Shown here: positions 49,372-64,000 of the stretch, one piece after another
Numbering within the stretch: position 1 is the stretch's first letter
Layout of the letters: every line of letters begins with the position of its first letter
NCBI GenBank assembly: GCA_012031265.1
Contig: JAAUTY010000005.1
Span: 62,001 to 126,000, forward strand
Source: Spirulinaceae cyanobacterium SM2_1_0
GTDB lineage: Bacteria; Cyanobacteriota; Cyanobacteriia; Cyanobacteriales; Spirulinaceae
Reading direction: 5' to 3'
DNA: 64,000 bases
Position numbers and translations under genes: made by a program
The notes under the pieces: model-generated
What the model saw: the letters and a program-made list of their open reading frames with translations, nothing else
Database searches by the model: none
Told to the model about the DNA's origin: nothing

Positions 49372-49583
49372 GGCTTGCTGTTGAGGGAGGCATCGAGATT
49401 TTCAGCGCAGTCAGGGGGGGCCGAGATTTTGATTTGCTTGAGGCGTGAGAGTCGGGAGCTGGTCGCTGGAGGCTCGGCATCTGGGGCGATCGCGGTGTCT
49501 TCAGCCGCTAGTACAAGGCGGCGGAAATGAGATGCCCATTCAAGATCCGTAGGATGCCCGTACTGTCTGCACTCATCACTCAA
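49368..49583 (-). CDS. Possible 71-residue ORF coupled to the desulfurase
   Basis: ATG at 49583 to a stop overlapping the desulfurase start by 4 bp. The product has an ordered N-terminal part (H-P-T-D-L-E-W-A-S-H-F-R-R-L-V-L-A-A-E-D-T) and a P/S-rich tail. No family was recognised. The 4-bp overlap suits translational coupling, but the N-terminal half may be intergenic read-through. The remaining 153 bp up to brxL contain an AACTCAAAATTC-type element resembling the repeat at 6261-6315 and nothing else recognised. Confidence 0.3.
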   Translation of the reverse strand: MSDECRQYGHPTDLEWASHFRRLVLAAEDTAIAPDAEPPATSSRLSRLKQIKISAPPDCAENLDASLNSKP

Positions 49584-49735
49584 AACTCAGAACTCAAAAT
49601 TCCGCGTAGCGGTACTAGTGGGGTCTGGTCGTCTGGAGCGGCAAGCAAGATGACGCGAACCGCTTTCCCCGTGTCAGAATTGAGCTGTTGTAGCAGAGTG
49701 ACGCGAGGACAACAACTAAGTCTGAAATTTTATGC

Positions 49736-51193
49736 TCAACAAACATCGACAAGGATTTCGGCACCGAGAGGCTTAAACTCTTCATCGAGATGATACAGCG
49801 AATTGCGAATCGCTTGCCGCATTTCGACAGCGGGCTGGAGGCAGTCGCGTTGATAGTCAGCGAGGGTCAGTTCGAGATGTGGGTAGAGCAGTTTGAGGAA
49901 ACCGGCGGCGGATTTGAGGATGGCGTTTTGGTCGCGGATGTTGGCAGTCTGGTTGAATTGACTGTGGGTTTGAGCGTAGGCATAGAAGCGGTTGTCACGG
50001 CGGAGAGCAAGCAGAACTTCGCCAAAAAAATCCATTTTTAGCCCGACCTGATGAGCTATCATCTCGCGCTGAAACTTGGGAATTTTCCAGCCGGGAATGA
50101 CGCCAGCCAGCCGGTCGATGAAAGCCGTTTCTGAGAGAAAATCGGGGAGGTTGGCAAAGAGGTTGTCAGGGGAGCGCGGTTGCAGATGGGTATTTAAGTC
50201 AATATTCGCCAGCATCACCAGCGAGCAATCGCTGCTGATGTCGGCGAAACCAGCACGGTTGTAACGGCCGTTTGCAAGGTAGTTTTTCAATGGGCCGATC
50301 ACTTCGTCAGGGTTGTCGAAGGTGAGACTTTGGACTTCATCGAGCACAACAACATCGTGACGGCCGAGTAGACCGACTTCTTTGGTTTTGCCATTGATAA
50401 AAAGTTGCGCCGGTGTCGTTTTACCGCCACTGATCACGGCAACTTTGTTGCTGATATTTTCAAAGATGAAGCTTTTGCCCGTGCCTTTGGGGGCCAGTTC
50501 GACAACGTGATAATTGGCTTCGACAAGTGGTAGCAAGCGGGCGAGAACCCAGGACTTCGCTTCGCTGCTGTAAGCGGGGTGGTCGGGATTGAAGCCCATC
50601 GAACAGAGCAGCAGATCGCGCCAGGCTTCTAGGCTGAATTGGGCGCGACAGCGGGCATAGTCGTTCAGGTCAATGACCGAGCATTGAAAGGGATCAAAGT
50701 CGATCACTTCTAGTTTGCCGCTGGGCAGCATGGAGAGGCTGATTTTGCCCCAGATTCCCTGGCGGAGGAGCGATTTATGGCGCTGAATCAGATCGGTAGG
50801 AATCGCACAATCGTCAAAATTGAGGACGGGAATTTTTGCTTTGGGGTCGGGGATGGCCTCACCTTTGGCACTCAGTTTCACCCGCACTTGCATCAGAGCA
50901 ATGAGCTTACGAACTTCGCCCTGGGTGAGATCAAAGAGAATGACATTGCCATCATCTTTGCGCGGTAGGGCTTTGCTCACGAAGCTGTTGACTTTGGTCA
51001 GTTCGTCGTGGTTCAGTGGGCCGCAGCCGGGGACGATTTTATCGAGCAGCCACTCAGCGACGAAGCTGGGAACACCGATAGCATTGAGACCGCTGGAGGG
51101 TAGGCGGGTTTTGTCGATTGCTAACGTTCCGAAGACATGGCGGATGCGATCGCTATCGTAAGTTTCAGAAGCCGCGAAATTAGAGGAAGTCAT
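49736..51193 (-). CDS. brxL: BrxL-type AAA protein lacking the Lon protease domain
   Basis: 485 residues from ATG 51193; an in-frame TTG at 51205 is possible. The N-terminal region has the BrxL pattern (V-P-S-F-V-A-E-W-L-L-D-K-I, then L-L-R-Q-G-I-W-G-K-I). The AAA+ core follows with Walker A A-P-K-G-T-G-K-S and Walker B V-V-V-L-D-E. The sequence stops after V-E-M-R-Q-A-I-R-N-S-L, the point where full-length BrxL (about 680 residues) continues into a Lon-like protease domain. No remnant of that domain was seen downstream. BrxL is a BREX effector that forms DNA-binding rings (family knowledge). The start overlaps the PglZ-fusion stop by 14 bp, so translation is coupled. Confidence 0.8.
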   Translation of the reverse strand: MTSSNFAASETYDSDRIRHVFGTLAIDKTRLPSSGLNAIGVPSFVAEWLLDKIVPGCGPLNHDELTKVNSFVSKALPRKDDGNVILFDLTQGEVRKLIALMQVRVKLSAKGEAIPDPKAKIPVLNFDDCAIPTDLIQRHKSLLRQGIWGKISLSMLPSGKLEVIDFDPFQCSVIDLNDYARCRAQFSLEAWRDLLLCSMGFNPDHPAYSSEAKSWVLARLLPLVEANYHVVELAPKGTGKSFIFENISNKVAVISGGKTTPAQLFINGKTKEVGLLGRHDVVVLDEVQSLTFDNPDEVIGPLKNYLANGRYNRAGFADISSDCSLVMLANIDLNTHLQPRSPDNLFANLPDFLSETAFIDRLAGVIPGWKIPKFQREMIAHQVGLKMDFFGEVLLALRRDNRFYAYAQTHSQFNQTANIRDQNAILKSAAGFLKLLYPHLELTLADYQRDCLQPAVEMRQAIRNSLYHLDEEFKPLGAEILVDVC

Positions 51194-54100
51194 CCAGATT
51201 CTCAATGCCGCTGCTAAATATTTGTTCGATGGTTATGGCCGATTCTGCACTGAGTTCGGTCTTGGCAGGGCGATCGCCGGGATAGCAAAAACTCAGTCGC
51301 CCGCTCAGTCTCAGTTGCTTGCTGTCGTGTCCGATCGGAAGTTCTGGGCATTGTTCTAGGGAGAGTTTTGTTGACCAAGATTGATGAGCCGGGATGCGGT
51401 CGGCAAGCGGCTGTCCGGTTCTAAAGGCGGGCAGTTCCTCAATCTGGAGCGCGAGATCGCTGAGAGCGACGGGGTTGGTATTGTTAATCGTAACGGTGAG
51501 TTCACCCCTGGCTCGGGGTTTGCCCGTGCCGGTGACGGTGATGAAGACGGGCAGGCGCTGAACCTGACGACTCAGGACAGAGACGCCGACGACGACTTCT
51601 TCGGGAAACAGACCGCCGTGGGGGCCGATGGCGCTACGGTCGGTGGCGTAGGTGTAGGCGTTGAGGTAGCCGCAGCCTTTGATGACGCTGATGTCGTGGG
51701 GAAGGCCGAAACGTTGGGGATCGAGATAGACGAAACCCGGTGCCTCGGTGCAGCCGAGAATCATGCGACCTTTGCACTCCTGGGCCTCAGGTGGTGGGCT
51801 AATCTGCGGTGTTTTGCCCAGCATCTGACCGTGATCGCTGGCGATGATGACTTGCAGGCGCTCGGGTTCAGGATACTGGTTAAAGCAGTGGTCAATACTT
51901 TTGACAATGCCTTCGAGGACGTGCGATCGCTTCACCAAATCCAAACTTTGCCAATCATTATGACTGTGATAGAGTTCGTCCAATTCCACTGTATCCCAGC
52001 AATAGATTGCGTATTTTTTGCAGGCTAAATCTTTGTGGAGTTGGCGAACTTGGCGATCGCTATAGCGGCGACCCTTGGGATAGTCAAACCCTTTCGCGAC
52101 ATCACCAGTCCAGGTGGAATGGTTGGGCAATTGTTGGGCGTAGAGGCTCCATTTTGCATACTCCGTTTTGGTCGGCAGGATGCTGAAGCGAGGGGCGAGA
52201 TCGTCGGTGAGTTGCAGTTGACCAGATTGCGTGAGGTGGTCGAGCAATTCTTGGTGGTCGAGCCAGCCTAAGCCATCGACAACCACCCAGAGAATGGGGT
52301 GTGATTGGCTCTGATCGCGCACCAGACTACCGACGCTGTAGTTGAGCCGGGAGCGATCAACCGGCTCGTGGGTGAGGGCGGGATAGTTTTGGAACAGCCA
52401 GTCAGCGAAGCTCTCGGCGAGGCGATCGCTCTGTCGCTCGTCCATCGGTGCTTGCTGGACGGCGATCTCCCAGCGGCGGTAGGGGAGGTACTGCTGGGTC
52501 GCCCAGGCGAGGGCGGTGTCGGGGTCGGCGTCGGGGCTGAGGGGCGCGGGCTGGGGCGGGGCTTGGTGGCGTTGGAGGTCGCGTTTTTGGTCGGGGCTGA
52601 GGTAGGCGCGCAGTTTGGTTTGGCGATCGCGGGTGATCCACTGCGGGCGGGTCAGGAGAACTTGGCAGGCTTGCGCGGCGATGCGGTCAGCGCCAGGGAG
52701 TTGGGCGAGGTTGAGTGGGTCGAGATCGCTGAAACCAGTGCGGTAGAAGCGATCGCGCCAGTAGGTGTCAAATTCCTGACTCAGGCAGTCAGGAACCGGC
52801 AGCGGGTAGGAACCGAGGTCAGGGATAGGGGGCGCAGCGATGCCCAGCCAGCGTCGCAGGGTGTCCAATTTGGTCGCGGGCTGGTAGTAGGGTACGAGTG
52901 GATGGTGGGCGTGCTGGCGGTACCAAGCCTGTTCGAGGGGGCGAGCGTCTTCGGGCAGTTGTAGGGTCAGCCAAGTAGCAAGCTGCTCAGGACTCGGCTC
53001 GGCAAGCCACAAAGCGGGATCGCTGTCGCTGAGATCGGCGAGCAGACGGGCGACGGGGCGGTCGGGGTAGCGGGCGAGAGCGCTAGCGAGGGCGAGGATT
53101 TGCTCGTCGTTCCAGGTGTCGGGAATGAGGTCGTCGCCGAGGTCGTCGGCGATCGCGGCGCGAGGTGCTTCTAGGGTCTCGAAGTCGCTGCGTTTGCGCG
53201 CGTGCAACCAGGCCGCGGCCCACTCGCAGGGACGCTGGCCGGCAATCCAGTAGGGGGAATTGCTGCGGTCGAACTTCTCGAGGAATTCGACTTCGCTGCG
53301 AATGGCGATGTAGCCGCTGGGGATCGGGTAGACGCCGGAAGGATCGAGGACGATCGGGCGATCGGGGTCGGGTTTGGCAGGGGGTTGGTGGGTGAGGTAG
53401 CTGAAGAGGCTGGTGCGATCGTCTTGCCGGGATGCTTGGCGATCGCGGGTAGGGGTTGGGGGCGCGCTAACGACTGGTTGCGGTGTGGGCTGGGTGTTGA
53501 GGACGGGTGCGGGTTCGGGGGTGGGTTCAGGCTCGGGCTCGGCAACGGGTGTGGGTTGCGGCTCGGGCTTCGGCTCGATGTCGAGGATGGGAACGGGTGC
53601 GGGTTGCGGTTCCGGGGCGATCGCCGGAGCCTGACTCGCTTCCAGGGCATCGAGAAATGCCTCGGCATTGGCGAAGCGGTCGGCGCGCTTGGGGGCGATC
53701 GCTTTGAGCATCACCGCGACCAGAGCCTCGCTCAACTCGTCAGGATTCTCAACAAATTGGCGCGGATCAGGAGCGAGTTGATTGCGGGGTGGTTCCGGCG
53801 CGTCGAAGGGATAGCGGCCGGTTACGCATTCATAAACTGTCAGACTAAGGGCGTAGAGATCGCGATCGATTTTGCCGCTTTTGCTGGCGTTGCGCACCTT
53901 GAATTTTGGCGGCATATAGCGACGTGTCCCGGCGCTTTCGTCATAGTCGCTATCGTCAGAAATGGCGATATTAAAGTCAATAATCTTGACGCCTTGTTCG
54001 GTCAGAAATAAATTTTCGGGCTTGATGTCCTGGTGATAGATGCCGTGGTCGTGAATGTGGGCGAGACCTGCGGCCGTTTGTTGGGCGATTCGGATGCTGT

Positions 54101-55838
54101 CATCGATCGAGAGCGAGCCATCGGCGATCGCGGCATCAACCGTTTTTCCATCGATGAATTCTAACAGCAGATAGGGCGTGCCATCTCGCAGTTGGTCAGC
54201 ATGGATAAAATCAACAATGTGAGGATGTTTTGAGACCTTAAGCAACGGTTTCAGTTCTTGCTTGAGGCGCTCGACAGTTGAGTAGCGATCACTGACGACC
54301 AACTTGAGCACCTGTGATTTGTCGTAGAGTCCGTTGAATACTTTGTAAGCAACGGCAAAGCTACCAGGCTGACCCAATCGTTCTTCAACACGGTAGTTTT
54401 CGTCAATCACATGACCGACTGGCAAGTTCCTCAGGTCGAGCCGCTTTTGCTCGTCAAGAAACTCCGTGAGTTTGTGAAGGGCTTCGTCGGCGCTAGCGTG
54501 GCGATTTTCGGGTTCCAGAGCGCAGAGTTTTTGCAACCAGCTATCGAAGCTTGCCGCGAGATTGGGGTTAATTTCCGAAGCGGGCTTAGGAAAGATCGCA
54601 TGACAATCATCCAACTCCTCAACATCTCGAAAAGCCGGTTTGCCGACGAGTAATTCATAGAAAATTGCACCGGCTGCAAACAGATCGGATTTTTGGCTGG
54701 CGCGACCAGGATTGTTGTGGACTTCGGGGGCTTGATAAATGGCGTCGGCTTCAAGATACGCCGCAATCTCACCGGCGATCGTCCCTTGGCGATGACCGAT
54801 GCGCGCATAGTCGAATTTGGTCAGTAGCGTGCGGCCGCTGTCGTCTACAAGAATCGTGTCGGGAGTAAGGTTGCGGTGAATAATGTCGTGACGATGGAGA
54901 TGGCGGAGGGCGTCTAAAATCTCCTCAATAATGCGGCGCTTGCGATCAAGCTTGAGGCCGCTTTGTCGCCCATATTGACGCAGTGATTGAGCAGAAACGT
55001 CATCCGTGACAATGATCCAACTATCTTCTGATTGTGATTGAAAACAGTGGGTAACGTTGAGAATGTTGGCGTGTTCGGGGAGTTTTCGCAGGGCTAAAAA
55101 AGCCGTGCCGATTAACTGGCGCTCGGCAGCTTGTTCTTCGGGACTAGCGTAGAGGTTGCTGGGATAAACACGCAGACGCACCTTGGCTTCTGCGCCCAGA
55201 ACATTGTGATGAGCGCGATATTCGGTGTAGCGATCGCTCCGATCCAGCTCTTTGATAACCTGCCACTCGCCATAACAGGGGCTGCGTTTAGGAGCCGCTT
55301 TGCCACAGATCGCCCGCCGCACGAGGGGCTTCAATTCACGAATATCCTGGAGGCGGCCCTGGGGAATGAAATCGCGGCGGTTGAAGTGGTCGGCGCAGCG
55401 ATCGCGAGCGTAGATCACGTAAGGTCGATCGAGACCCTGCGCGTCATCCAAGCTGGCATCGTCCGCCATCATCATCACGGCAGGGTGAACATGGACTTTG
55501 TGGAGCGGGCGGGTGCGATCGAGATCGCTGATCGTGCTGCTCAGAGCTTTGGCGTTCGCCCGGAGTTTGGCAACAGGCGAGTGGAAAGGCTCGCGACGAT
55601 CGGGATACCAGCGCGAGCCACTCACCTCGACATGACCGCGAGTGCCTTTGACATCAACGACAAAAACGCATTGCGGGCCGATGATCACCATATCAATCTC
55701 GAAGACTTCGCGCTCGTTGCGGCGGATTTCGAGGTTATGGATAATCTCAAACTCGTCGGATAGGTTGCCCTTTAAATAGAGAATGGCATCACTCTCGGCT
55801 TCATTTTCAGGTTTAGCAATAGGATGTACTTTAGCCAT
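51180..55838 (-). CDS. NERD-pseudokinase-kinase-PglZ fusion (PglW-PglZ-like)
   Basis: 1552 residues. NERD domain (about 11-130; F-E-I-D-M-V-I-I-G and V-V-D-V-K-G-T). Kinase-like domain 1 (195-462) has H-R-N instead of HRD (321-323) and D-Y-A instead of DFG (343-345), so it is a pseudokinase. Kinase domain 2 (482-735) keeps Lys 512 (V-L-K-L-V), H-Q-D (602-604) with K-P-E-N, and D-F-N (621-623), and looks active. A P/E-rich linker (737-800) and an unassigned region (820-1130) precede the PglZ alkaline-phosphatase-like domain (about 1183-1420): V-V-V-D-G-L-G, S-D-H-G and G-P-H-G-G-L-F-P-E-E. NERD plus Ser/Thr kinase is the PglW layout. GGAGG lies six bases before ATG 55838, and the gene overlaps brxC by 8 bp. 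Seen in cyanobacteria as a fusion here; rarity elsewhere not checked. Confidence 0.88.
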   Translation of the reverse strand: MAKVHPIAKPENEAESDAILYLKGNLSDEFEIIHNLEIRRNEREVFEIDMVIIGPQCVFVVDVKGTRGHVEVSGSRWYPDRREPFHSPVAKLRANAKALSSTISDLDRTRPLHKVHVHPAVMMMADDASLDDAQGLDRPYVIYARDRCADHFNRRDFIPQGRLQDIRELKPLVRRAICGKAAPKRSPCYGEWQVIKELDRSDRYTEYRAHHNVLGAEAKVRLRVYPSNLYASPEEQAAERQLIGTAFLALRKLPEHANILNVTHCFQSQSEDSWIIVTDDVSAQSLRQYGRQSGLKLDRKRRIIEEILDALRHLHRHDIIHRNLTPDTILVDDSGRTLLTKFDYARIGHRQGTIAGEIAAYLEADAIYQAPEVHNNPGRASQKSDLFAAGAIFYELLVGKPAFRDVEELDDCHAIFPKPASEINPNLAASFDSWLQKLCALEPENRHASADEALHKLTEFLDEQKRLDLRNLPVGHVIDENYRVEERLGQPGSFAVAYKVFNGLYDKSQVLKLVVSDRYSTVERLKQELKPLLKVSKHPHIVDFIHADQLRDGTPYLLLEFIDGKTVDAAIADGSLSIDDSIRIAQQTAAGLAHIHDHGIYHQDIKPENLFLTEQGVKIIDFNIAISDDSDYDESAGTRRYMPPKFKVRNASKSGKIDRDLYALSLTVYECVTGRYPFDAPEPPRNQLAPDPRQFVENPDELSEALVAVMLKAIAPKRADRFANAEAFLDALEASQAPAIAPEPQPAPVPILDIEPKPEPQPTPVAEPEPEPTPEPAPVLNTQPTPQPVVSAPPTPTRDRQASRQDDRTSLFSYLTHQPPAKPDPDRPIVLDPSGVYPIPSGYIAIRSEVEFLEKFDRSNSPYWIAGQRPCEWAAAWLHARKRSDFETLEAPRAAIADDLGDDLIPDTWNDEQILALASALARYPDRPVARLLADLSDSDPALWLAEPSPEQLATWLTLQLPEDARPLEQAWYRQHAHHPLVPYYQPATKLDTLRRWLGIAAPPIPDLGSYPLPVPDCLSQEFDTYWRDRFYRTGFSDLDPLNLAQLPGADRIAAQACQVLLTRPQWITRDRQTKLRAYLSPDQKRDLQRHQAPPQPAPLSPDADPDTALAWATQQYLPYRRWEIAVQQAPMDERQSDRLAESFADWLFQNYPALTHEPVDRSRLNYSVGSLVRDQSQSHPILWVVVDGLGWLDHQELLDHLTQSGQLQLTDDLAPRFSILPTKTEYAKWSLYAQQLPNHSTWTGDVAKGFDYPKGRRYSDRQVRQLHKDLACKKYAIYCWDTVELDELYHSHNDWQSLDLVKRSHVLEGIVKSIDHCFNQYPEPERLQVIIASDHGQMLGKTPQISPPPEAQECKGRMILGCTEAPGFVYLDPQRFGLPHDISVIKGCGYLNAYTYATDRSAIGPHGGLFPEEVVVGVSVLSRQVQRLPVFITVTGTGKPRARGELTVTINNTNPVALSDLALQIEELPAFRTGQPLADRIPAHQSWSTKLSLEQCPELPIGHDSKQLRLSGRLSFCYPGDRPAKTELSAESAITIEQIFSSGIENLDDFL

Positions 55839-58800
55839 CGGCTACCTCCGTCGTTTTGCCGAGGTATTGTTTGAGTTCGGTGTAAAGCTCCTCGCGCTGG
55901 ACGCGGTGCAGTTGTTGGAACAGTAGGCGAATTTGGCTGGCTTTGTCTTTGGCTTGTTCGTCCTGGCAGAGATCGATCACTCGCTCCAGGGTGCCTCTCA
56001 GTTCTGTGGTGAGATAGTCTTGATGCTGGCTCTGCTGCTGGTGAATTGTTTTGAGTAGTTCGATGGCGATCGCCAGCTTCTCGTGGTCATTGCTGGTGCG
56101 GTAAATTCTAGAAGCTTCTTGACCGAGTGTTTTGATCCAGGCATCAGCCGCTTGGCGCTTCTGCTCGTAGAGTTGCTGATTGGTTGTGTCGATCTCTTTG
56201 AGTTTGGCCGTGTAGATGTCTTCGAGGTCGGGGGAGCAGTCGGGGAGATTTTTGTGCCAGCGGGTGAGGCGATCGCGCAACTCCTGGCATTTTTCCAGCG
56301 TGGTTGGTGCGGTGCTGTCGAGCAGTTGGTAGAGGTCGAGGACGCGCTCGGCGTCTGCGCTCAGGGTTTGGAAGCGCTCGGCGAGTGGCGAATCCTTGTA
56401 GACATCCTCTCGCTTGAGGAGTTTCTTTTGCAGGTTTTTGGCGCTGCGGGTGTCGCTGACTTGGTCAAGTTCTTGCTCGAACTGGATCAGTGCTTGCTCA
56501 AAGGTTTGCTGTGTGTCCGCGAGTTTTTGGCGGATCTCGGCGAGGGCGGCTTGACCGCGATCGCAGTCGTGCAACGACACCTGCTCGAGCAAGTCGCGGA
56601 TCTCTTGACACTGGACGATGCTGCGGCATTGGCGGCTGCGGGTGGCGAGATCGGCGAGGGTGTTCAGGTCGGCGAGGCGGTGGCGAATCGGATCGCCGAG
56701 GGTCTGGTAGGCCTCGAGCTGGCTGGAGCCTTGGAAGATGTAGGCTTTGCCGTTGTAGTCGAGTTGGAGTTGGGTGAGGGCGTCGAGGGCGGTGACTTGA
56801 GCGAGGCGATCGCGCCAGTCCTGCAACTGCCGCTGGTAGCCTGCGATTTTGGTTTGGAGGTCTTGTTGGATGGCGGCGATTTCTTTTTGGTAGGGGTCGG
56901 GGTTGTGGAGCTGGGCGCGGCGCTGCTCGATGTCGGCGAGGGCATCGTCGCAGAGTTGCAGTGTGTTGAGCTTTTTGCTGGCTTTGTAGGCGCGGATCGC
57001 CTGCATGGTTTGCTTGTCTGCGGCGTCGCGTTTGCCCTGTTCGATTTGCCGCTCAATCTCCTCGCGACGAGCCGCGAGATCCGCTAGGGTGCGCTCGAGC
57101 TGGTCGCGGAGGTCAGCGAAATCGTCGTCGTTGACGAGGTCGCGAGCCGAGTTGAGGCGCTGTTGTTGGGTGTTGCAGTCGTTGAGGCTGCTGACGGTGC
57201 GATCGCAAATTTGCCCGAAGCGCTGGGCGAGCAGCGATCGCCCTTCGGTCTGTTTCGCTTGCAGTTTCTCGCCATAAGAATTAGCAAGTTCAGTATTATC
57301 CGTCTCAGGCAAGTCTAGATCGGCAAGTTCTTGATAAACCTTGAAGATTTCCGGCATTTTCCCAAAGGGCAGATCGCGGATGCGCTGGATTTTTTGTTGG
57401 GCGATATTGAGAACTTCTAGGAAGGGGTTGATGCCGGATGGCGGCGGTTCGCGATCGCGATCGCCGTCAGTGGGGTTAACGATCGTTTTGTCGAGTTTGG
57501 CTTGGAGCTGTTTGAGGCGATCGCCATAGCTGGGCTCCGTGTAGCGCCGGCTCTGCGTGGTGATGACCTTAACCAATTCCAGTGCTTGTTCTGTGGAGGT
57601 CGCGCTATCCGCTTGGCTTTCCCAGGCATCGACTTGATCGAGCAGTTCGCGGTGATTCAGATCGAGGTCTTGGCGGATTTTTTGGACTTCGCTGGCGGCC
57701 GGGCTGTCGGCGGGGATTTTCGCGCTCAGGGGGTCGATTTGCTGACAGGCCTTGGCGTAGTCCTGTTGGGTGAAGTAGTTGGGGAGTTGAGCGGCCTGAC
57801 GGATTTGGGTTAGATCCTGCTCAATTTGTTCAGCTTGGCGGAAGCCCTGGCGGCAGCGCTGGGCGACTTGTTGGGCGTAGTTGAGGCTGGTGGCGAGGTC
57901 GTCGGGGAGGCTGGCGGTGGCTGTCACTTGCTCAAGGGCAACTTGCAAGTCTCGGAGATAAGCATTGCAGGCATCGAGGTCGGGGAGGCTGTCGCTGCGC
58001 TCGCTGAGTTGGTCGATGCTGTTGCGGATGCGGTTGAGGACACTAGTTTGGGCGGTGGTCTGGCGATCGCGCTGCTCCGGACTCGGCCGCACACTGACGA
58101 CCTCGGCGCGCATCTCGATCGGAGGCAGTTGCGCCTGCAAGGTGGGGTAGACGGCGAGCAAGTTGGCGAGGGGCGCGGGATCGGGCAGGGCTTCGGCCTT
58201 TTCAACTGGCTTGAACCACTGGCGGATTTTGTTGAGTTCGGCGGCGATCGCGTCGCGATTGGCTTCGGCATCGAGCCGCTCGGAGGTCTCGGTCTCGCTG
58301 GGTTCGCGGGCGAGGAAGCGGTTGAGGGCGTCGTGGTAGGCCTCGGCCTCGGGGAAGCTGGCCGGGAACGGGGGCGACGGCGGCAGAACCGGGCGCTGGC
58401 GGCGGATCAGGCTGGCTTTGTGCGCGAGTATCCAGGTGCGGACGAAATCGACGGGCTTGCCGAGGATGTCGGTTTTGGCCCATACAGGGAGCGCTTGGGT
58501 GGCGATCGTAACCTTTTCGCCGCGCCTGAATTTGATTTGGGGCGGGCCTTTGAGGGCGACTTCGCGGTGGCGATCGGCTAGCCAGGCGGCGAGCAGGACG
58601 GTGAAGGTGTATTCGTTGTAGCCGTAGGGCGGGCTGCTGAGGCGCTGCCAGAGTCTGGCGAGGGGGATGGTTTTCTGCCTCGCCGTTGAGGTCAGCGAGG
58701 CGGGAGAGTTCGGCCCAGGCGTCGCGGACTGCTTCTTGCTGGGGCTCCTGGAAGCGGTAGCGGTCGGAGGTCTTGTGGAAGAGTCGCCAGGTGGAGCAGA

Positions 58801-61257
58801 AGACTTGATCGAGGATCGTCTGGTACGACCGATCGGGCAAGCTGTGGGTGGGGAGTTCGCCCGCGAAGAGTTGGCGGGCAATGAAACCGGTCACCTTGGA
58901 ACCCGTGTTGTGACCGGAGCCCATCTGGCTCATACCGCCGACGGGGGGCACGAAGGGGTAGAGTTCGGTGAGGAGGGCGCTGATGTAGCGGGCGGGGTTG
59001 TGTTGTTCTTGGGCGGGGACTTTCGCTTGGACGCGGCAGTGGTGGGTGCAGTTTTCTGGCTGGACGAGGCGCTGGAGGGTGGTGTCGAGTTCGCCGCGCC
59101 AGCGTTTGAGGAGTTGTTGGTAGGCTTCGCCCCAGAGGCGGCGATCGCCCGGGTCTTTTTTCTGAAGCAGTTGGATCTTGCAGAGCAGGTTGCCGAGGGG
59201 GCCGACTTCTTCGGTGGGAATGGCGGCGACGAGATGATTTTTGAGGGGGGAGTGGGCTAATTTTTCCTCAATGCTGTGGCGCAAGTCTTGCAGTTCGGCT
59301 TGGTCGGTCGCGAGGACATAGGCGAGCAGGCCGCGACTCTCGAGGGATTTCAGTTCAGTATCGCTTTGCAGTTTGGACAGGAACTCACTAATGCTGTAAA
59401 AACGCTGTTCAAATTGCCAATCGTCATAGGCAAGTTGCCGCTCGCTGATGAAGGGTTCGGCGGCGAGGCGCTCGCTCTTGAGATACTGACTGACGCGACC
59501 CTGACAGTATTGCACGAGGCGCTCGAACAGGTCGCTAGGCTCGGGCTGGTTGACTAACTCGCTAAATTCCTCGTCGATCGCTTTTTCGAGTTCGTTGGGA
59601 TTGATGCCCTCGAAGAAAGCGTAAGTTTTCGTTGCTTTTTGGTAGTAAATAATCTGGCGATTTTCCTCGAGGCTCTTGAGGGCAGCATCGAGGCGGGAGC
59701 GGGAGAGGCCGGTGAGGGCGGCGAGGATTTCTTGGTGGTTTTGGGTATCTTTTTGGCAAGCTTGCCTTCGCTGTGGTGGTAGAGGAAAAGGGCTTGGGCA
59801 ACGGTTAGCTCATCGGGATTATCGGCGTTTTCTAGTTGGGCGAAGGAGCGGTGATGGATGGAGTCATCGGGAATTTTGATAAAAGCCTTAACGAGCTTGA
59901 CGGGATAGAAATAGTTCAGCTTGCCATTGATTTCGATGTCCTCATCGAGGAAGGGAACGAGGTGATTGCCGAGAAATTGGATGACGCTGCGATCTTGCGT
60001 CAAGGGGAGATTGGCGAGCAGGCCTGCGGTGATGGGGTGTAAGGGGAAGCAACCCAGGGCGAGATGGGTGTGGAATTGGTCAAATGGCCAGCCGCGTTCG
60101 CGATAGGTCCTGAGGTGCGATTCGTAGGCGCTGCGGGCTTCGGCGCGGAGGGTGTCGCTCCATTTTTGCTGGAAGGCTGGCCAGGGGGCGGGTTGGGCGC
60201 GGATCAGGCTGTCGAGGACGAGTTCGAGGCTGGAAACGGGTTCGTATTTGCAATCTTGGAGGCGCGAGGTGATTTTGCCGTAGCGATCGCCTGCGGTAGC
60301 GCTGACATCTCTTCTTTTGCCAGGATCGATCTGGGTAAAGCTGAGCAGGGCAATTTTGCTGGGGTTATTTTTGCAGACGTTGGTGATGTTTTGTAGGGCA
60401 GTGCCGCCCGCAGCTTCTTCGTCGGCGATCCAGGTTTGTAGGTAGTAGTTGAGTTCGTCGAAGAGGATGAGGATGCCCTGGAAGCGGGGAGCGTCGCCGC
60501 GACAGAGCTGGTGGATTAGGTCGGTGAGGATTTTTTCAATATCGATGCTGTCTTGGAAGTCGATCGGGAAGCCGTTGTTGAATGCGCGGGAGAGGTCGCG
60601 GACGGTGCGGATGGCGCTGGTGTCGGCGTTGCGGAGCAGCTCGAGCAGACCGGGGAGGTCGCCGCCGGGGGCGTTGTTTTGCGCGAGCCAGGTGTTGGCG
60701 CGCGCGACTTGCTCGGGGCTGAGGCTGGTGAGGTATTGCTGGGGCGGCTCGCAGATGTTGACGGCGGCGGCGTCGGGGACGCCGGCTTGCTCGAGAGCGT
60801 GGAGGGTGGCTTGCAGGAAGTTTTTGCGGAGGTCACCGCCGCGATCGCCACTGATACAAATGACCAGATGCTGGCGATCGCTATAGGCCCGTAAGCCTTC
60901 GACTAGACCAGGATTGCGGCTGGCAACGGCGCTCTCGACCTGGTGGAGGATACCCTGGACTTCGGGGGAGTCGCCAGGTTGAGCAAAGTAGTTGGCGACG
61001 GCGATCGCGAAGTGCGATTTGCCTTTGCCGTAGCCCTGGATCATCAGGTGGACATTGGGGCTGGTGACGCTGTGATAGCTGCGGCGCAGGCTGTCGAGGA
61101 TGCCAGCGGTGGAGTCAGTCTGCTTTTCGTGGATGTAGTTAAAGATGAAGCCTTCGCAGAGTTCGCGGTTGGTCTCGGGCTCGTCAAGCATCAAGAAGTT
61201 GACGGAGCTGCGGAGGATGCCTTTTTGGTTGACTTCGATCAGGTCGCGGAGGAGCAT
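55831..61257 (-). CDS. brxC: BrxC/PglY-type BREX ATPase, two apparent compensating frameshifts
   Basis: About 1808 residues if both shifts are corrected. The first frame (61257 to about 59752) holds the P-loop ATPase: Walker A G-Y-G-K-G-K-S (75-81), Walker B L-I-L-F-D-E (263-268) and the BrxC-like D-P-G-K-R-R. Near 59750-59754 (a run of five A in the coding strand) sense continues in the -1 frame (K-D-T-Q-N-H-Q-E-I-L-A-A-L-T). Near 58665-58690 sense returns to the original frame (K-T-I-P-L-A-R-L-W-Q-R-L). The shifts cancel, and the intervening ~1.07 kb is clearly protein-like. The C-terminal 1000 residues are mostly coiled coil. BrxC is the central ATPase of BREX. Either assembly errors or real indels; see findings. 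Neighbours: BrxF-like gene 48 bp upstream, PglZ fusion overlapping by 8 bp. Confidence 0.85.
58665..58690 (-). other. Apparent frameshift point 2 in brxC
   Basis: Coding strand passes from ...CTCAACGGCGAGG to CAGAAAACCATC..., with sense shifting back by one base to the frame used before point 1. Removing one base around the GGCGAGGCAG stretch restores continuity. Confidence 0.65.
59750..59754 (-). other. Apparent -1 frameshift point 1 in brxC
   Basis: Coding strand reads GCC-AAA-AAG-ATA in the upstream frame, with meaningful sequence resuming in the -1 frame. A missing A in the run would restore one frame. The heptamer C-AAA-AAG differs from the efficient bacterial slippery site A-AAA-AAG at the first base. 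Confidence 0.7.
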
Positions 61258-61305: not shown

Positions 61306-61743
61306 TTAGGCGAATGCTAAGCGGCGCTGGGCGGGCCAGTCTTTGGGGGCGAGGGCGGGTGGCAGGACGATCCAGAGGCGGCAGGGGAGTTTGCGGGTTT
61401 GCTGGAGGTTGCTCCAGAGGAGTTTGAGGTTGCCACCACTGGGGCGGACGCGCAGGTAGGTGAGCAGCCAGTCGAAGTCTTCGAGCAGGATCAGGGGACG
61501 GGTGGTGCGATCGCACATCGCTTTCAAGGCGGCGAGTTCGCGATCGAGGTAGGCATCGAGGTTAAGGAATTTGCTGCCGGAGTCGAGCCGCTGGAGGAGG
61601 TCGTCGCGGTAGCTAAGGCGATCGCCATTGACATAGCTGGCGAGCTTATTCAGCTCAAGGTCGCGGGGCGCATCCCAGAGCAGCAGGTGGATTTGGTTGG
61701 CGGGTTCGGCGCGGTGGAGTTCGGGCAGGGGGGTAGGGAGCAT
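61306..61743 (-). CDS. Small BrxF-like protein of the BREX locus
   Basis: 145 residues from ATG 61743. Alternating hydrophobic strands (I-H-L-L-L-W-D-A-P, R-P-L-I-L-L-E-D-F-D-W-L-L and C-R-L-W-I-V-L-P-P) suggest a small P-loop-like fold with a Walker-B-like L-I-L-L-E-D, but no Walker A is visible. Size and place before brxC recall BrxF of type 3 BREX; this is tentative. Stop-to-start gaps are 48 bp to brxC and 19 bp to the DUF4007 gene upstream, so it is in the same operon. Confidence 0.6.
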   Translation of the reverse strand: MLPTPLPELHRAEPANQIHLLLWDAPRDLELNKLASYVNGDRLSYRDDLLQRLDSGSKFLNLDAYLDRELAALKAMCDRTTRPLILLEDFDWLLTYLRVRPSGGNLKLLWSNLQQTRKLPCRLWIVLPPALAPKDWPAQRRLAFA

Positions 61744-61762: not shown

Positions 61763-62587
61763 TTAGGCTTGGTAGGCTTGGTCGAGCAGCTCGAGAGGGT
61801 CGCTCCAGCGGGGGACGATCTGGCTGGGCGAGTCGCGGCTGAGTTGTGCGATCGGGCCGCGGGTTTCGAGGTCGTTGAGGTGGGGCTGGATTTGTTCGGG
61901 CCATAGGCTGAGGATGGGGGCGATGCCGTAGGGTTGGTTGAGGATGGTTTCGGTGAGTTGGCAGGTTTGGCCGGGGTAGTCGCGCTGCCAGAGTTTGGCG
62001 AGGAAGTAGCCGATCAGGTATGGGTTGGGGAGGCTGGGGTTTTGGGTGGAGTAGCTGTTGCCGCTGAAGGTGAGGTATTGGCAACCTTTGAGGGCTTGGG
62101 GCTCGGTGTAGGCGCGCAGGAGATATTTGAAGTTTTTGGCGAGCAGTTTGGGGCTGTCATCGAAAATGTCGCTGCTAGCTTGGGTGAGTTGGTCGGCGGT
62201 GAAGTCGGTGTGGCGGGGGGCGAAGTCGTAGACGAACCAGGTCCAGCCGCCCCAGTCGGCGGGATCGTCGGGGGGCTGGGCGAGGCTGTTGCTACCGAAG
62301 CTGAGGTAGAAGTGCATCAGCCAGTCGGTGATGAGGGAGTCAAGATAAGGATCGTGACGCAGGACGATTTCGCCTTCGGGGCTGAGGCGTTTGTTGGCGA
62401 TGAGACCAGCGCGGGCAGCCCAGCTTTGTACCGGCCCAATTTTCCTATTCCCCAGCCCTGTTCGCACTAGCAAATTATCGGGTGAGTCTTTCAGCCCTAC
62501 TTCGCTAGATGCTGCATTCAGCACTTTACGCACATCCTCTTTCTTGAGGGCGAATGTCGTGTGAAAACCTAGCTGTAGCTTTGGCAT
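61763..62587 (-). CDS. DUF4007 family protein, copy A
   Basis: 274 residues. DUF4007 pattern: F-H-T-T-F-A-L-K-K-E-D-V-R-K-V-L-N, V-R-T-G-L-G-N-R-K-I, L-S-P-E-G-E-I-V-L-R-H-D-P, then W-L-M-H-F-Y-L-S-F and the C-terminal W-S-D-P-L-E-L-L-D-Q-A-Y-Q-A. The family travels with PAPS-reductase-like DndC/BrxP proteins; a DNA-binding helix-turn-helix is likely in the C-terminal half (inference). A paralogue follows upstream in the transcript (62639-63487). The two are about 55-60 percent identical in protein by eye, much higher in the C-terminal third. GC-rich like the host. Confidence 0.85.
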   Translation of the reverse strand: MPKLQLGFHTTFALKKEDVRKVLNAASSEVGLKDSPDNLLVRTGLGNRKIGPVQSWAARAGLIANKRLSPEGEIVLRHDPYLDSLITDWLMHFYLSFGSNSLAQPPDDPADWGGWTWFVYDFAPRHTDFTADQLTQASSDIFDDSPKLLAKNFKYLLRAYTEPQALKGCQYLTFSGNSYSTQNPSLPNPYLIGYFLAKLWQRDYPGQTCQLTETILNQPYGIAPILSLWPEQIQPHLNDLETRGPIAQLSRDSPSQIVPRWSDPLELLDQAYQA

Positions 62588-62895
62588 GGGACTAGGGACA
62601 GTGAGTTAAGGGTTGTTCAGACAAAACCAGTTCAAAAATTAGGCTTGGTAGGCTTGGTCGAGCAGCTCGAGGGGGTCGCTCCAGCGGGGGATGATCTGAA
62701 AGGGGGAAACTTCGCGGCGCTGGCTGATGATGCCGTAGGTTTCGAGTTGGTTGAGGTGGGGTTGGAGTTGGTTGGGGGAGAGGCCGAGGACGGGGGCGAG
62801 GCCGTAGGGTTGGTTGAGGATGGTTTCGGTGAGTTGGGAGGTTTGGCCGGGGTAGTCGCGCTGCCAGAGTTTGGCGAGGCAGTAGCCGATCAGGC
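61763..62895. repeat. Direct repeat: 3' parts of the two DUF4007 genes
   Basis: Segments 61763-62018 and 62639-62895 carry long stretches of near-identical DNA; the 94 bp at 61925-62018 and 62801-62894 differ at only a few positions by eye. Such repeats favour recombination, copy-number change and assembly collapse. Confidence 0.75.
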
Positions 62896-63487
62896 GTGGG
62901 TTGGGGAGGTCGGGGTGTTGCGTAGAGTATTGATCGCCGCTGATAGTAATGTATTGACAACCTTTTAAAGCATGGGGTTCAGTATAGGCTCGCAGGAGAA
63001 TTTTGAAGTTTTTAGTTAAGTTCCTGAGATTATCATCAAAAATAGCGGTACTAGTTTGACCAAGTTCCTCCAAGGTAAAAGTAGTATAACGAGGGACAAA
63101 CTTATAAACAAACCAAGTCCAGCCGCCCCATTCAGCAGGATTAGTTGGGGGTGTAGGCAGCTTTTTATTTCCAGCGCTAAAGTCCTTGTCCCCAAAGCTG
63201 ATATGGAAGTGCATCAGCCAATCAGTAACGAGAGAATTGAGATTAGGGTCATGACGCAAGATAATTTCGCCTTCAGGGCTGAGTTGTCCACCTGAAATCA
63301 GCCCGGAGCGCGTTGCCCAGCTACGAATTGGACTGACTTTCTGGTTGCCTAAACCTGTCCGAAGCTGTAGGTTCTCGTGCGAACCAAGATTGCCCTCTTC
63401 TAGTGCAACGTTGAGCACTTTGAGCACGTCCTCTTTTTTGAGCGCAAAAGTTCCATGGAAACTTATCTTCGGTTTCGGTTTTTGCAT
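62639..63487 (-). CDS. DUF4007 family protein, copy B (AT-rich 5' part, GC-rich 3' part)
   Basis: 282 residues with the same layout as copy A: F-H-G-T-F-A-L-K-K-E-D-V-L-K-V-L-N, L-R-T-G-L-G-N-Q-K-V, L-S-P-E-G-E-I-I-L-R-H-D-P, W-L-M-H-F-H-I-S-F, ending in the identical W-S-D-P-L-E-L-L-D-Q-A-Y-Q-A. DNA coding the first ~175 residues (about 62960-63487) is AT-rich and free of HIP1. The rest is GC-rich and nearly identical to copy A (for example 62801-62894 against 61925-62018). This mosaic points to duplication or conversion between the copies. Next in the transcript is copy A after 51 bp. Confidence 0.85.
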   Translation of the reverse strand: MQKPKPKISFHGTFALKKEDVLKVLNVALEEGNLGSHENLQLRTGLGNQKVSPIRSWATRSGLISGGQLSPEGEIILRHDPNLNSLVTDWLMHFHISFGDKDFSAGNKKLPTPPTNPAEWGGWTWFVYKFVPRYTTFTLEELGQTSTAIFDDNLRNLTKNFKILLRAYTEPHALKGCQYITISGDQYSTQHPDLPNPRLIGYCLAKLWQRDYPGQTSQLTETILNQPYGLAPVLGLSPNQLQPHLNQLETYGIISQRREVSPFQIIPRWSDPLELLDQAYQA

Positions 63488-63554: not shown

Positions 63555-64000
63555 CTAGGCATGACACATTAAGCAAGGCAAGTCCATATCATCTCCATCC
63601 TCACTTAAAACATCCTCGAGAAGAGTAGCGAGAGGTTTGTTGCTTTTATCCTCTGCAAGTTGCTTGTTCTCCATAGCAGTGCGGTGATTTTCTAAAATTT
63701 CGTCTTTCCGAGCCAGAAGCTCAGTTAAACTCTCTCCTTGCACCCAGGTATACCCACGCGCCTGAGCACTTCTCTCATAATCGAGCGCCTTCTGGAACAG
63801 ATCCGGATGTCTTTCGGACAACATGATCCACTCATACTTACGCTGATAGAAACAGAAAAAACATCCAGAACGACTGCGCCACTCGTAATATTTCGGTAAT
63901 CCTATGCCGCTCTCCTCTAATAGTCGGAAAATGTCATCTTTCACTAATCCATGCTCTTTAAAGGGAAATACAGGCTTGATATTGGGCCTTCGTGATATAT
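63555..64000 (-). CDS. brxP: PAPS-reductase-like protein (BrxP/DndC type), C-terminal part
   Basis: The frame is open to the window end; about 147 C-terminal residues are visible and the N-terminus lies beyond base 64000. The stretch P-V-F-P-F-K-E-H-G-L-V-K-D-D-I-F, G-I-G-L-P-K-Y-Y-E-W-R-S and the cysteine motif S-R-S-G-C-F-F-C-F-Y-Q match the C-terminal part of DndC/BrxP-type proteins, where such cysteines bind an iron-sulfur cluster. It ends with L-P-C-L-M-C-H-A. These proteins activate DNA sulfur incorporation or related chemistry. First visible gene of the BREX-like operon. AT-rich relative to the window, suggesting recent transfer. Confidence 0.8.
   Translation of the reverse strand, partial: ISRRPNIKPVFPFKEHGLVKDDIFRLLEESGIGLPKYYEWRSRSGCFFCFYQRKYEWIMLSERHPDLFQKALDYERSAQARGYTWVQGESLTELLARKDEILENHRTAMENKQLAEDKSNKPLATLLEDVLSEDGDDMDLPCLMCHA

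What the first reader, a model, noticed from the sequence alone, without database searches (positions are those of the whole stretch)
61763..63487. Tandem DUF4007 genes with mosaic composition
The 3' parts of both copies are nearly identical and GC-rich; the 5' part of copy B, and the BrxP end beside it, are AT-rich and lack HIP1. This suggests duplication followed by gene conversion, or a recent second arrival recombining with an ameliorated resident copy. N-terminal divergence with C-terminal identity hints at different target recognition with a shared partner surface.
Basis: partly seen in the sequence, partly recalled or inferred. Interest (0 to 1): 0.6.

Follow-up and report, generated by a model that had tools for sequence, protein, structure and literature searches.

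The report
Hybrid recognition gene at defence-swap site
In a cyanobacterium's phage-defence locus, one of two neighbouring DNA-recognition genes is a splice of an AT-rich front half and a back half shared with its neighbour, and the assembly shows a different defence module occupying the same site, which suggests that such loci swap their weapons by recombining inside or beside this gene.

Summary
The two genes are tandem SspB-like DUF4007 genes in a cyanobacterial phosphorothioate/BREX-type-4-like locus. Copy B is a mosaic. Its silent-site identity to copy A steps from 45/110 to 65/70 codons at window 62920 (permutation P 5e-5), and its own GC3 steps from 0.43 to 0.84 at 62917. A structure model (pLDDT 93; SspB crystal Z 20.9) puts this step at the border between a FokI-like N-terminal part (1-186) and a C-terminal winged helix (187-274). 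The 3' parts are not simply near-identical: residues 222-259 of A (recognition helix and wing) have left the family consensus, while B keeps it. A and B are sisters in both half-gene trees, so a distant arrival is not needed. Across about 40 loci the C-terminal part tracks downstream brxC; the N-terminal part may track upstream sspD (14 loci, weak). Pseudanabaena loci show a similar junction. The assembly also has a two-arm bubble: contig C3 carries SspFGH-Mrr between the same two 127-bp anchors. Best reading: B is a recombination hybrid left by effector-module exchange at a phosphorothioate locus. New variant of a known kind.

The parts
61763..62587 (-). DUF4007-A (274 aa), SspB-like; its C-terminal winged helix departs from the family consensus at residues 222-259
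   Evidence: PF13182 39.8 bits; AF2 model pLDDT 92.8, Z 20.9 to SspB 6juf; A ranks 2nd lowest of 49 for consensus match in residues 223-259
62639..63487 (-). DUF4007-B (282 aa), mosaic gene
   Evidence: PF13182 38.1 bits; breakpoint analyses
62921..63487 (-). AT-rich 5' part of B (codons 1-189, FokI-like recognition part)
   Evidence: GC3 0.43, silent identity to A 45/110
62639..62920 (-). GC-rich 3' part of B (codons ~190-282, C-terminal winged helix), shares silent sites with A
   Evidence: GC3 0.84, silent identity 65/70
61763..62044 (-). corresponding 3' part of A (residues 182-274)
63555..64000 (-). sspD/brxP (PAPS-reductase-like), continues past the window to near the contig end; AT-rich (GC 0.44)
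   Evidence: PADLOC SspD 361.6 bits for the full protein from L010; GC 0.44
61306..61743 (-). small ORF conserved between DUF4007 and brxC in nearly all related loci; no Pfam or NCBIfam family
55831..61257 (-). brxC-like ATPase, one ORF of about 1300-1850 aa in most relatives, here split by two frame changes near 59750 and 58677
   Evidence: tblastn of four intact relatives; weak PADLOC SspC match
51180..55838 (-). NERD - double kinase - PglZ-like fusion (1552 aa)
   Evidence: NERD and Pkinase; NF033442 PglW and weak BREX PglZ matches
49736..51205 (-). brxL
   Evidence: TIGR02688 over its cut-off; PF13337
48208..49371 (-). sspA/dndA-like cysteine desulfurase
   Evidence: PADLOC SspA 424 bits
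49544..49670 (.). left 127-bp junction, identical to contig C3:1-127; overlaps a ~111-bp dispersed repeat at 49508-49618

Best explanation
DUF4007 here is an SspB/BrxA-type DNA-recognition subunit. It has a FokI-like N-terminal recognition part and a C-terminal winged helix, and it is the first gene of a BREX-like effector module (DUF4007, small ORF, brxC, kinase-pglZ, brxL). That module sits between phosphorothioate genes (sspD on one side, sspA on the other). Recombination inside DUF4007 joined an AT-rich segment (sspD plus the N-terminal ~189 codons of B) to the resident C-terminal part at the domain border. This made hybrid B and left the old resident copy A beside it. B keeps the family-type C-terminal winged helix; A's has since drifted. 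Shown: the mosaic, the coincident breakpoints, the domain border, the sister relation in both halves, and A's departure from consensus. Inferred: that the AT-rich part came in from outside, that B took over the docking job with the resident BrxC side and relieved A of constraint, and that the junction is a by-product of effector-module exchange at this site, of which the SspFGH arm in contig C3 is another instance.
For: Silent-site break at 62920 and GC3 break at 62917, found separately. Silent identity exceeds codon-usage nulls. B's GC3 step is an outlier in the family. The model matches SspB over its full length (Z 20.9, 261 residues), FokI over 7-186, and single winged helices over 187-274. 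In the C-half tree, branch lengths are A 0.33 and B 0.05; in the N-half tree, A 0.23 and B 0.30. Of the 15 differences in residues 223-259, B has a family-like residue and A an odd one in 8, the reverse in 1. The C half tracks downstream genes. A similar junction occurs in Pseudanabaena (G227 against G208, G264, G232): the first ~125 residues are 94-100% identical and the rest 31-46%, with SspD 97-99.6% identical upstream and, in G208, brxC 44% identical downstream. C3:1-127 and C3:11431-11557 are identical to window 49544-49670 and to the contig end beyond the window, and both flanks beyond the anchors occur once; the C3 arm encodes SspF, SspG, SspH and an Mrr-like nuclease.
Against: The two half-gene tree conflicts tested in other species were not significant by AU test (p 0.28 and 0.07). 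The link of the N half with SspD rests on 14 loci, with a bootstrap interval that includes zero. Codon bias in the GC-rich tract makes dS, and thus the age of the event, unreliable. No donor genome for the AT-rich segment was found. brxC is frame-broken, so the system may not be active at all. The link of the C half with brxC could be physical linkage alone, without functional coevolution.
Confidence: 0.55

Rival explanations
1. Old tandem paralogues with simple gene conversion: A and B arose by an old duplication in this lineage, and a later conversion tract copied the 3' end of A onto B, with no import of foreign DNA and no module exchange.
For: A and B are sisters in both halves; the shared tract runs to the stop codon with a 33-nt exact run, and the spacers after A and B show no evident likeness.
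Against: It does not explain why B's 5' part and sspD share one AT-rich composition that starts where the identity to A ends, nor the junctions in other genomes.
Confidence: 0.3
2. Convergent codon usage: the two 3' parts look alike only because both use the same few GC-ending codons, and there was no recent shared DNA.
For: Expected codon identity under local usage is already 0.77-0.79, and columns 237-267 do not exceed it.
Against: In columns 191-236, 37 of 37 codons are identical against 30.3 expected (P 0.0005, most conservative null), and the breakpoints in composition and identity coincide.
Confidence: 0.07
3. Assembly artefact: B is a chimera of two strains' DUF4007 genes made by the assembler.
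For: The locus is one arm of an assembly bubble, so two haplotypes may be mixed.
Against: The longest exact A-B match is 41 nt, well under the 127-base overlaps seen at the contig ends, so an assembler had no evident reason to join there.
Confidence: 0.06
4. Decaying locus: the frame-broken brxC and the drifting copy A show that the whole module is dying, and the mosaic has no functional meaning. This can be true together with the best explanation for the origin of B.
For: Two frame changes in brxC; high dN/dS between A and B in the 3' part (0.83, 95% CI 0.43-1.66, against 0.06-0.34 in 42 family pairs), though codon bias inflates it.
Against: The other genes of the module are open, and B's C-terminal part stays close to the A-B stem (branch 0.05).
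Confidence: 0.35

Closest known systems
BREX type 4 (phosphorothioate-based BREX; PMC12839542)
   Same: PAPS-reductase-like protein, DUF4007, BrxC-like ATPase, PglZ, BrxL and a cysteine desulfurase in one locus.
   Different: sspD and DUF4007 are separate genes, where a fusion is frequent in the published set; sspD fits the SspD model far better than the BrxP model; PglZ is fused to a NERD-double-kinase part; DUF4007 is duplicated and mosaic.
SspABCD with SspE or SspFGH (PMC8092258)
   Same: SspA and SspD at the locus; SspB-SspC elsewhere in the genome (contig C7); SspFGH on the alternative arm; SspE beside the BREX-like module in L061.
   Different: The window arm has a BREX-like effector module in place of SspE or SspFGH.
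SspB nickase (6juf/6lb9) and BrxA
   Same: Full-length fold match to SspB (Z 20.9); DUF4007 and BrxA are reported to share this fold (PMC12839542, PMC9240713).
   Different: About 17% identity to SspB; nickase residues were not tested; tandem mosaic copies.
Variable defence locus of Streptococcus suis (PMC5398294)
   Same: Different defence modules exchanged at one chromosomal site.
   Different: No phosphorothioate or BREX genes there, and no in-gene hybrid reported in the passages read.

Membership tests
DUF4007 / SspB-BrxA-like recognition subunit | PF13182 match over the gathering cut-off | tested here: met
   39.8 and 38.1 bits against 27
DUF4007 / SspB-BrxA-like recognition subunit | Triple winged-helix fold like SspB | tested here: met
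   pLDDT 92.8; Z 20.9, 261 residues aligned to 6juf
SspB nickase | DNA-nicking activity and catalytic residues | not tested
   Residues were not mapped; no assay possible
BREX type 4 | PglZ | tested here: inconclusive
   Weak BREX PglZ matches at 1109-1239, under the cut-off; a homologous fusion in G060 (L058) matches PADLOC PglZ at 99 bits
BREX type 4 | BrxL | tested here: met
   TIGR02688 432 bits against 329
BREX type 4 | BrxC-like ATPase, intact | tested here: inconclusive
   Homologous to full-length relatives, but split by two frame changes
BREX type 4 | BrxP-type PAPS reductase | tested here: not met
   SspD model 361.6 bits; BrxP model 42.7 bits and partial
BREX type 4 | Phosphorothioate modification of host DNA | not testable with these tools
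   Needs chemistry or suitable sequencing data
Ssp phosphorothioate system | SspA, SspB, SspC and SspD in the genome | tested here: met
   SspA, SspD, SspB and SspC on C7

The most novel reading that the evidence does not exclude
The phosphorothioate locus is an effector-exchange site in which sspD and sspA stay in place while BREX-like, SspFGH-Mrr or HNH/PDC-M26 modules replace one another. DUF4007 acts as a two-part adaptor whose halves are re-paired by crossover near the domain border, and both alternatives coexist in the sequenced culture.
Probability: 0.3. Interest if true: 0.72.

Novelty: new variant of a known kind. Interest (0 to 1): 0.52.

Why it matters
How a DNA-modification system changes its restriction partner without harming the cell is an open question. 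A recognition subunit whose N-terminal half goes with the modification side and whose C-terminal half goes with the effector side would give a concrete, testable answer. The locus also offers natural hybrids and, in one assembly, two alternative effector modules between the same anchors.

Tried and rejected
HIP1 density as a marker of foreign DNA: A lacks HIP1 too, so it was dropped. A distant donor for B: not supported, as A and B are sisters in both trees. Viral contigs: no relative of A found. Solved structures by sequence alone: only a weak hit to an unrelated entry; the fold search succeeded. AU tests for half-gene conflicts in other species: not significant, so those conflicts are not used as proof. 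dN/dS as a measure of relaxed selection: kept only as a hint because of codon bias. The BREX type 4 gut-microbiome paper (PMC12914056) is not held. A search of the held library for DUF4007 found three papers; I found no report of mosaic DUF4007 genes in the passages read, which does not show that none exists.

Full report
What is there. The finding lies in a cyanobacterial genome of 5.03 Mb in 149 contigs; the window is C133:62001-126000, and the contig ends 438 bases past the window. Two intact DUF4007 genes lie in tandem on the minus strand, A at 61763-62587 and B at 62639-63487. Upstream is an SspD-type PAPS reductase. Downstream are a small ORF, a brxC-like gene, a NERD-kinase-PglZ fusion, brxL and sspA.

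Is the mosaic real? Yes. In codon columns 1-186, pS is 0.83 and pN 0.20; in columns 187-283, pS is 0.17 and pN 0.15. A scan of silent codons puts the break at window 62920 (A residue 182; support interval 167-186) with permutation P 5e-5. A separate scan of B's GC3 puts it at 62917 (0.43 to 0.84). GC over the whole stretch changes at 62922/62923. Forty-seven other sequences of the family have no comparable step (mean +0.07, sd 0.07; B +0.39). Because codon usage in the GC-rich tract is extreme, I tested the silent identity against the tracts' own usage. It still exceeds chance (P 0.003; columns 191-236, 37 of 37 identical, P 0.0005), but columns 237-267 do not. So recent shared DNA is shown for the first part of the tract, is likely for the last 16 codons, and is not shown in between.

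What the protein is. The AlphaFold model of A has pLDDT 92.8. It matches the SspB crystal structure over its full length (Z 20.9), FokI over residues 7-186, and single winged helices over 187-274. The mosaic break thus lies at the border between the FokI-like part and the C-terminal winged helix. Published work relates SspB, BrxA, DndG and the FokI recognition domain, and treats DUF4007 as the BrxA-like part of type 4 BREX (PMC10853773, PMC9240713, PMC12839542).

Which copy changed. In residues 223-259, which hold the recognition helix and wing of the C-terminal domain, A and B differ at 15 residues; at 8 of them B has a family-like residue and A an odd one, and the reverse holds at 1. In the C-half tree the A branch is 0.33 and the B branch 0.05; in the N-half tree they are 0.23 and 0.30. 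The other tandem pair found, in Tildeniella nuda (L095), also has one copy that departs from consensus in this block. The two lowest-ranked sequences of 49 in that block are these two tandem members; this is a post-hoc observation on two cases.

Origin. A and B are sisters in both half-gene trees (99/97 and 100/100), so neither half needs a distant donor. Their N-terminal identity, 64%, is somewhat above the between-species level, which fits either an old duplication or import from a near, unsampled relative. I could not separate the two. The AT-rich composition that B's 5' part shares with sspD favours import.

The wider locus. In about 45 cyanobacterial loci the order sspD - DUF4007 - small ORF - brxC - pglZ - brxL - sspA recurs in whole or part, nearly always with one DUF4007 of this type next to brxC. 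Distances in the C-terminal part follow those of the small ORF and brxC (r 0.82 and 0.81) better than those in the N-terminal part do (0.59 and 0.60), with bootstrap intervals that exclude zero (38 loci). The reverse holds for sspD (0.72 for N, 0.46 for C), but on 14 loci with an interval that includes zero. In Pseudanabaena, loci with near-identical SspD and DUF4007 N-termini diverge abruptly about 38 nt after the WGGW codons in G227 (residue ~125, so not at the same place as in B) and carry different downstream genes. AU tests of tree conflict were not significant.

The assembly bubble. The contig end beyond the window is identical over 127 bp to C3:11431-11557, and C3:1-127 is identical to window 49544-49670. 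The flanking DNA beyond each anchor occurs only once apart from short dispersed repeats and distant paralogues. Both overlaps are exactly 127 bp, which is what a graph assembler with k = 127 would leave; that k is inferred from the overlaps. The simplest reading is two alternative arms at one site: the BREX-like module in the window and, on C3, a frame-broken sspD, an Mrr-like nuclease and SspF, SspG and SspH. Mixed strains, differing chromosome copies within a polyploid cell, or a lost connecting contig would all give this graph.

Limits. brxC has two frame changes (near 59750 and 58677), so the module may be inactive or the sequence may contain errors. The age of the recombination cannot be dated. 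Function is inferred from fold and neighbours; no activity was tested.

Noticed in passing
window 49544-49670 and contig end beyond 64000; locus L050 1-11557: Contig C3 is an alternative path between two exact 127-bp anchors: SspH-SspG-SspF-Mrr-sspD in place of the BREX-like module.
   Followed up: partly
window 55831-61257: The brxC-like gene is split by two compensating frame changes near 59750 and 58677; most relatives have one open frame.
   Followed up: partly
L050 10696-11492: A second sspD in the same genome is frame-broken; its first ~130 bp (5' end and upstream) equal those of the window's sspD, and the rest is about 70-73% identical at DNA level.
   Followed up: partly
L051 4236-8778: A separate sspB-sspC pair on contig C7, away from the window locus.
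   Followed up: partly
window 49508-49618: A ~111-bp dispersed repeat with some 40 near-identical copies in the genome lies at the left edge of the exchanged module.
   Followed up: no
L096 11274-16655: In Pseudanabaena a DUF4007 gene is followed by an HNH-type protein and PDC-M26A/B-like genes in place of brxC, then sspA.
   Followed up: partly
L095 9016-10927: Tildeniella nuda has an independent tandem DUF4007 pair; one copy departs from consensus in the C-terminal winged helix, and its brxC appears fragmentary.
   Followed up: partly
window 51180-55838: NERD nuclease, double kinase and PglZ-like parts are fused in one 1552-aa protein.
   Followed up: no
L061 7719-9953: In Nostoc sp. 106C an SspE gene lies between sspD and DUF4007, so two effector types share one locus.
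   Followed up: no
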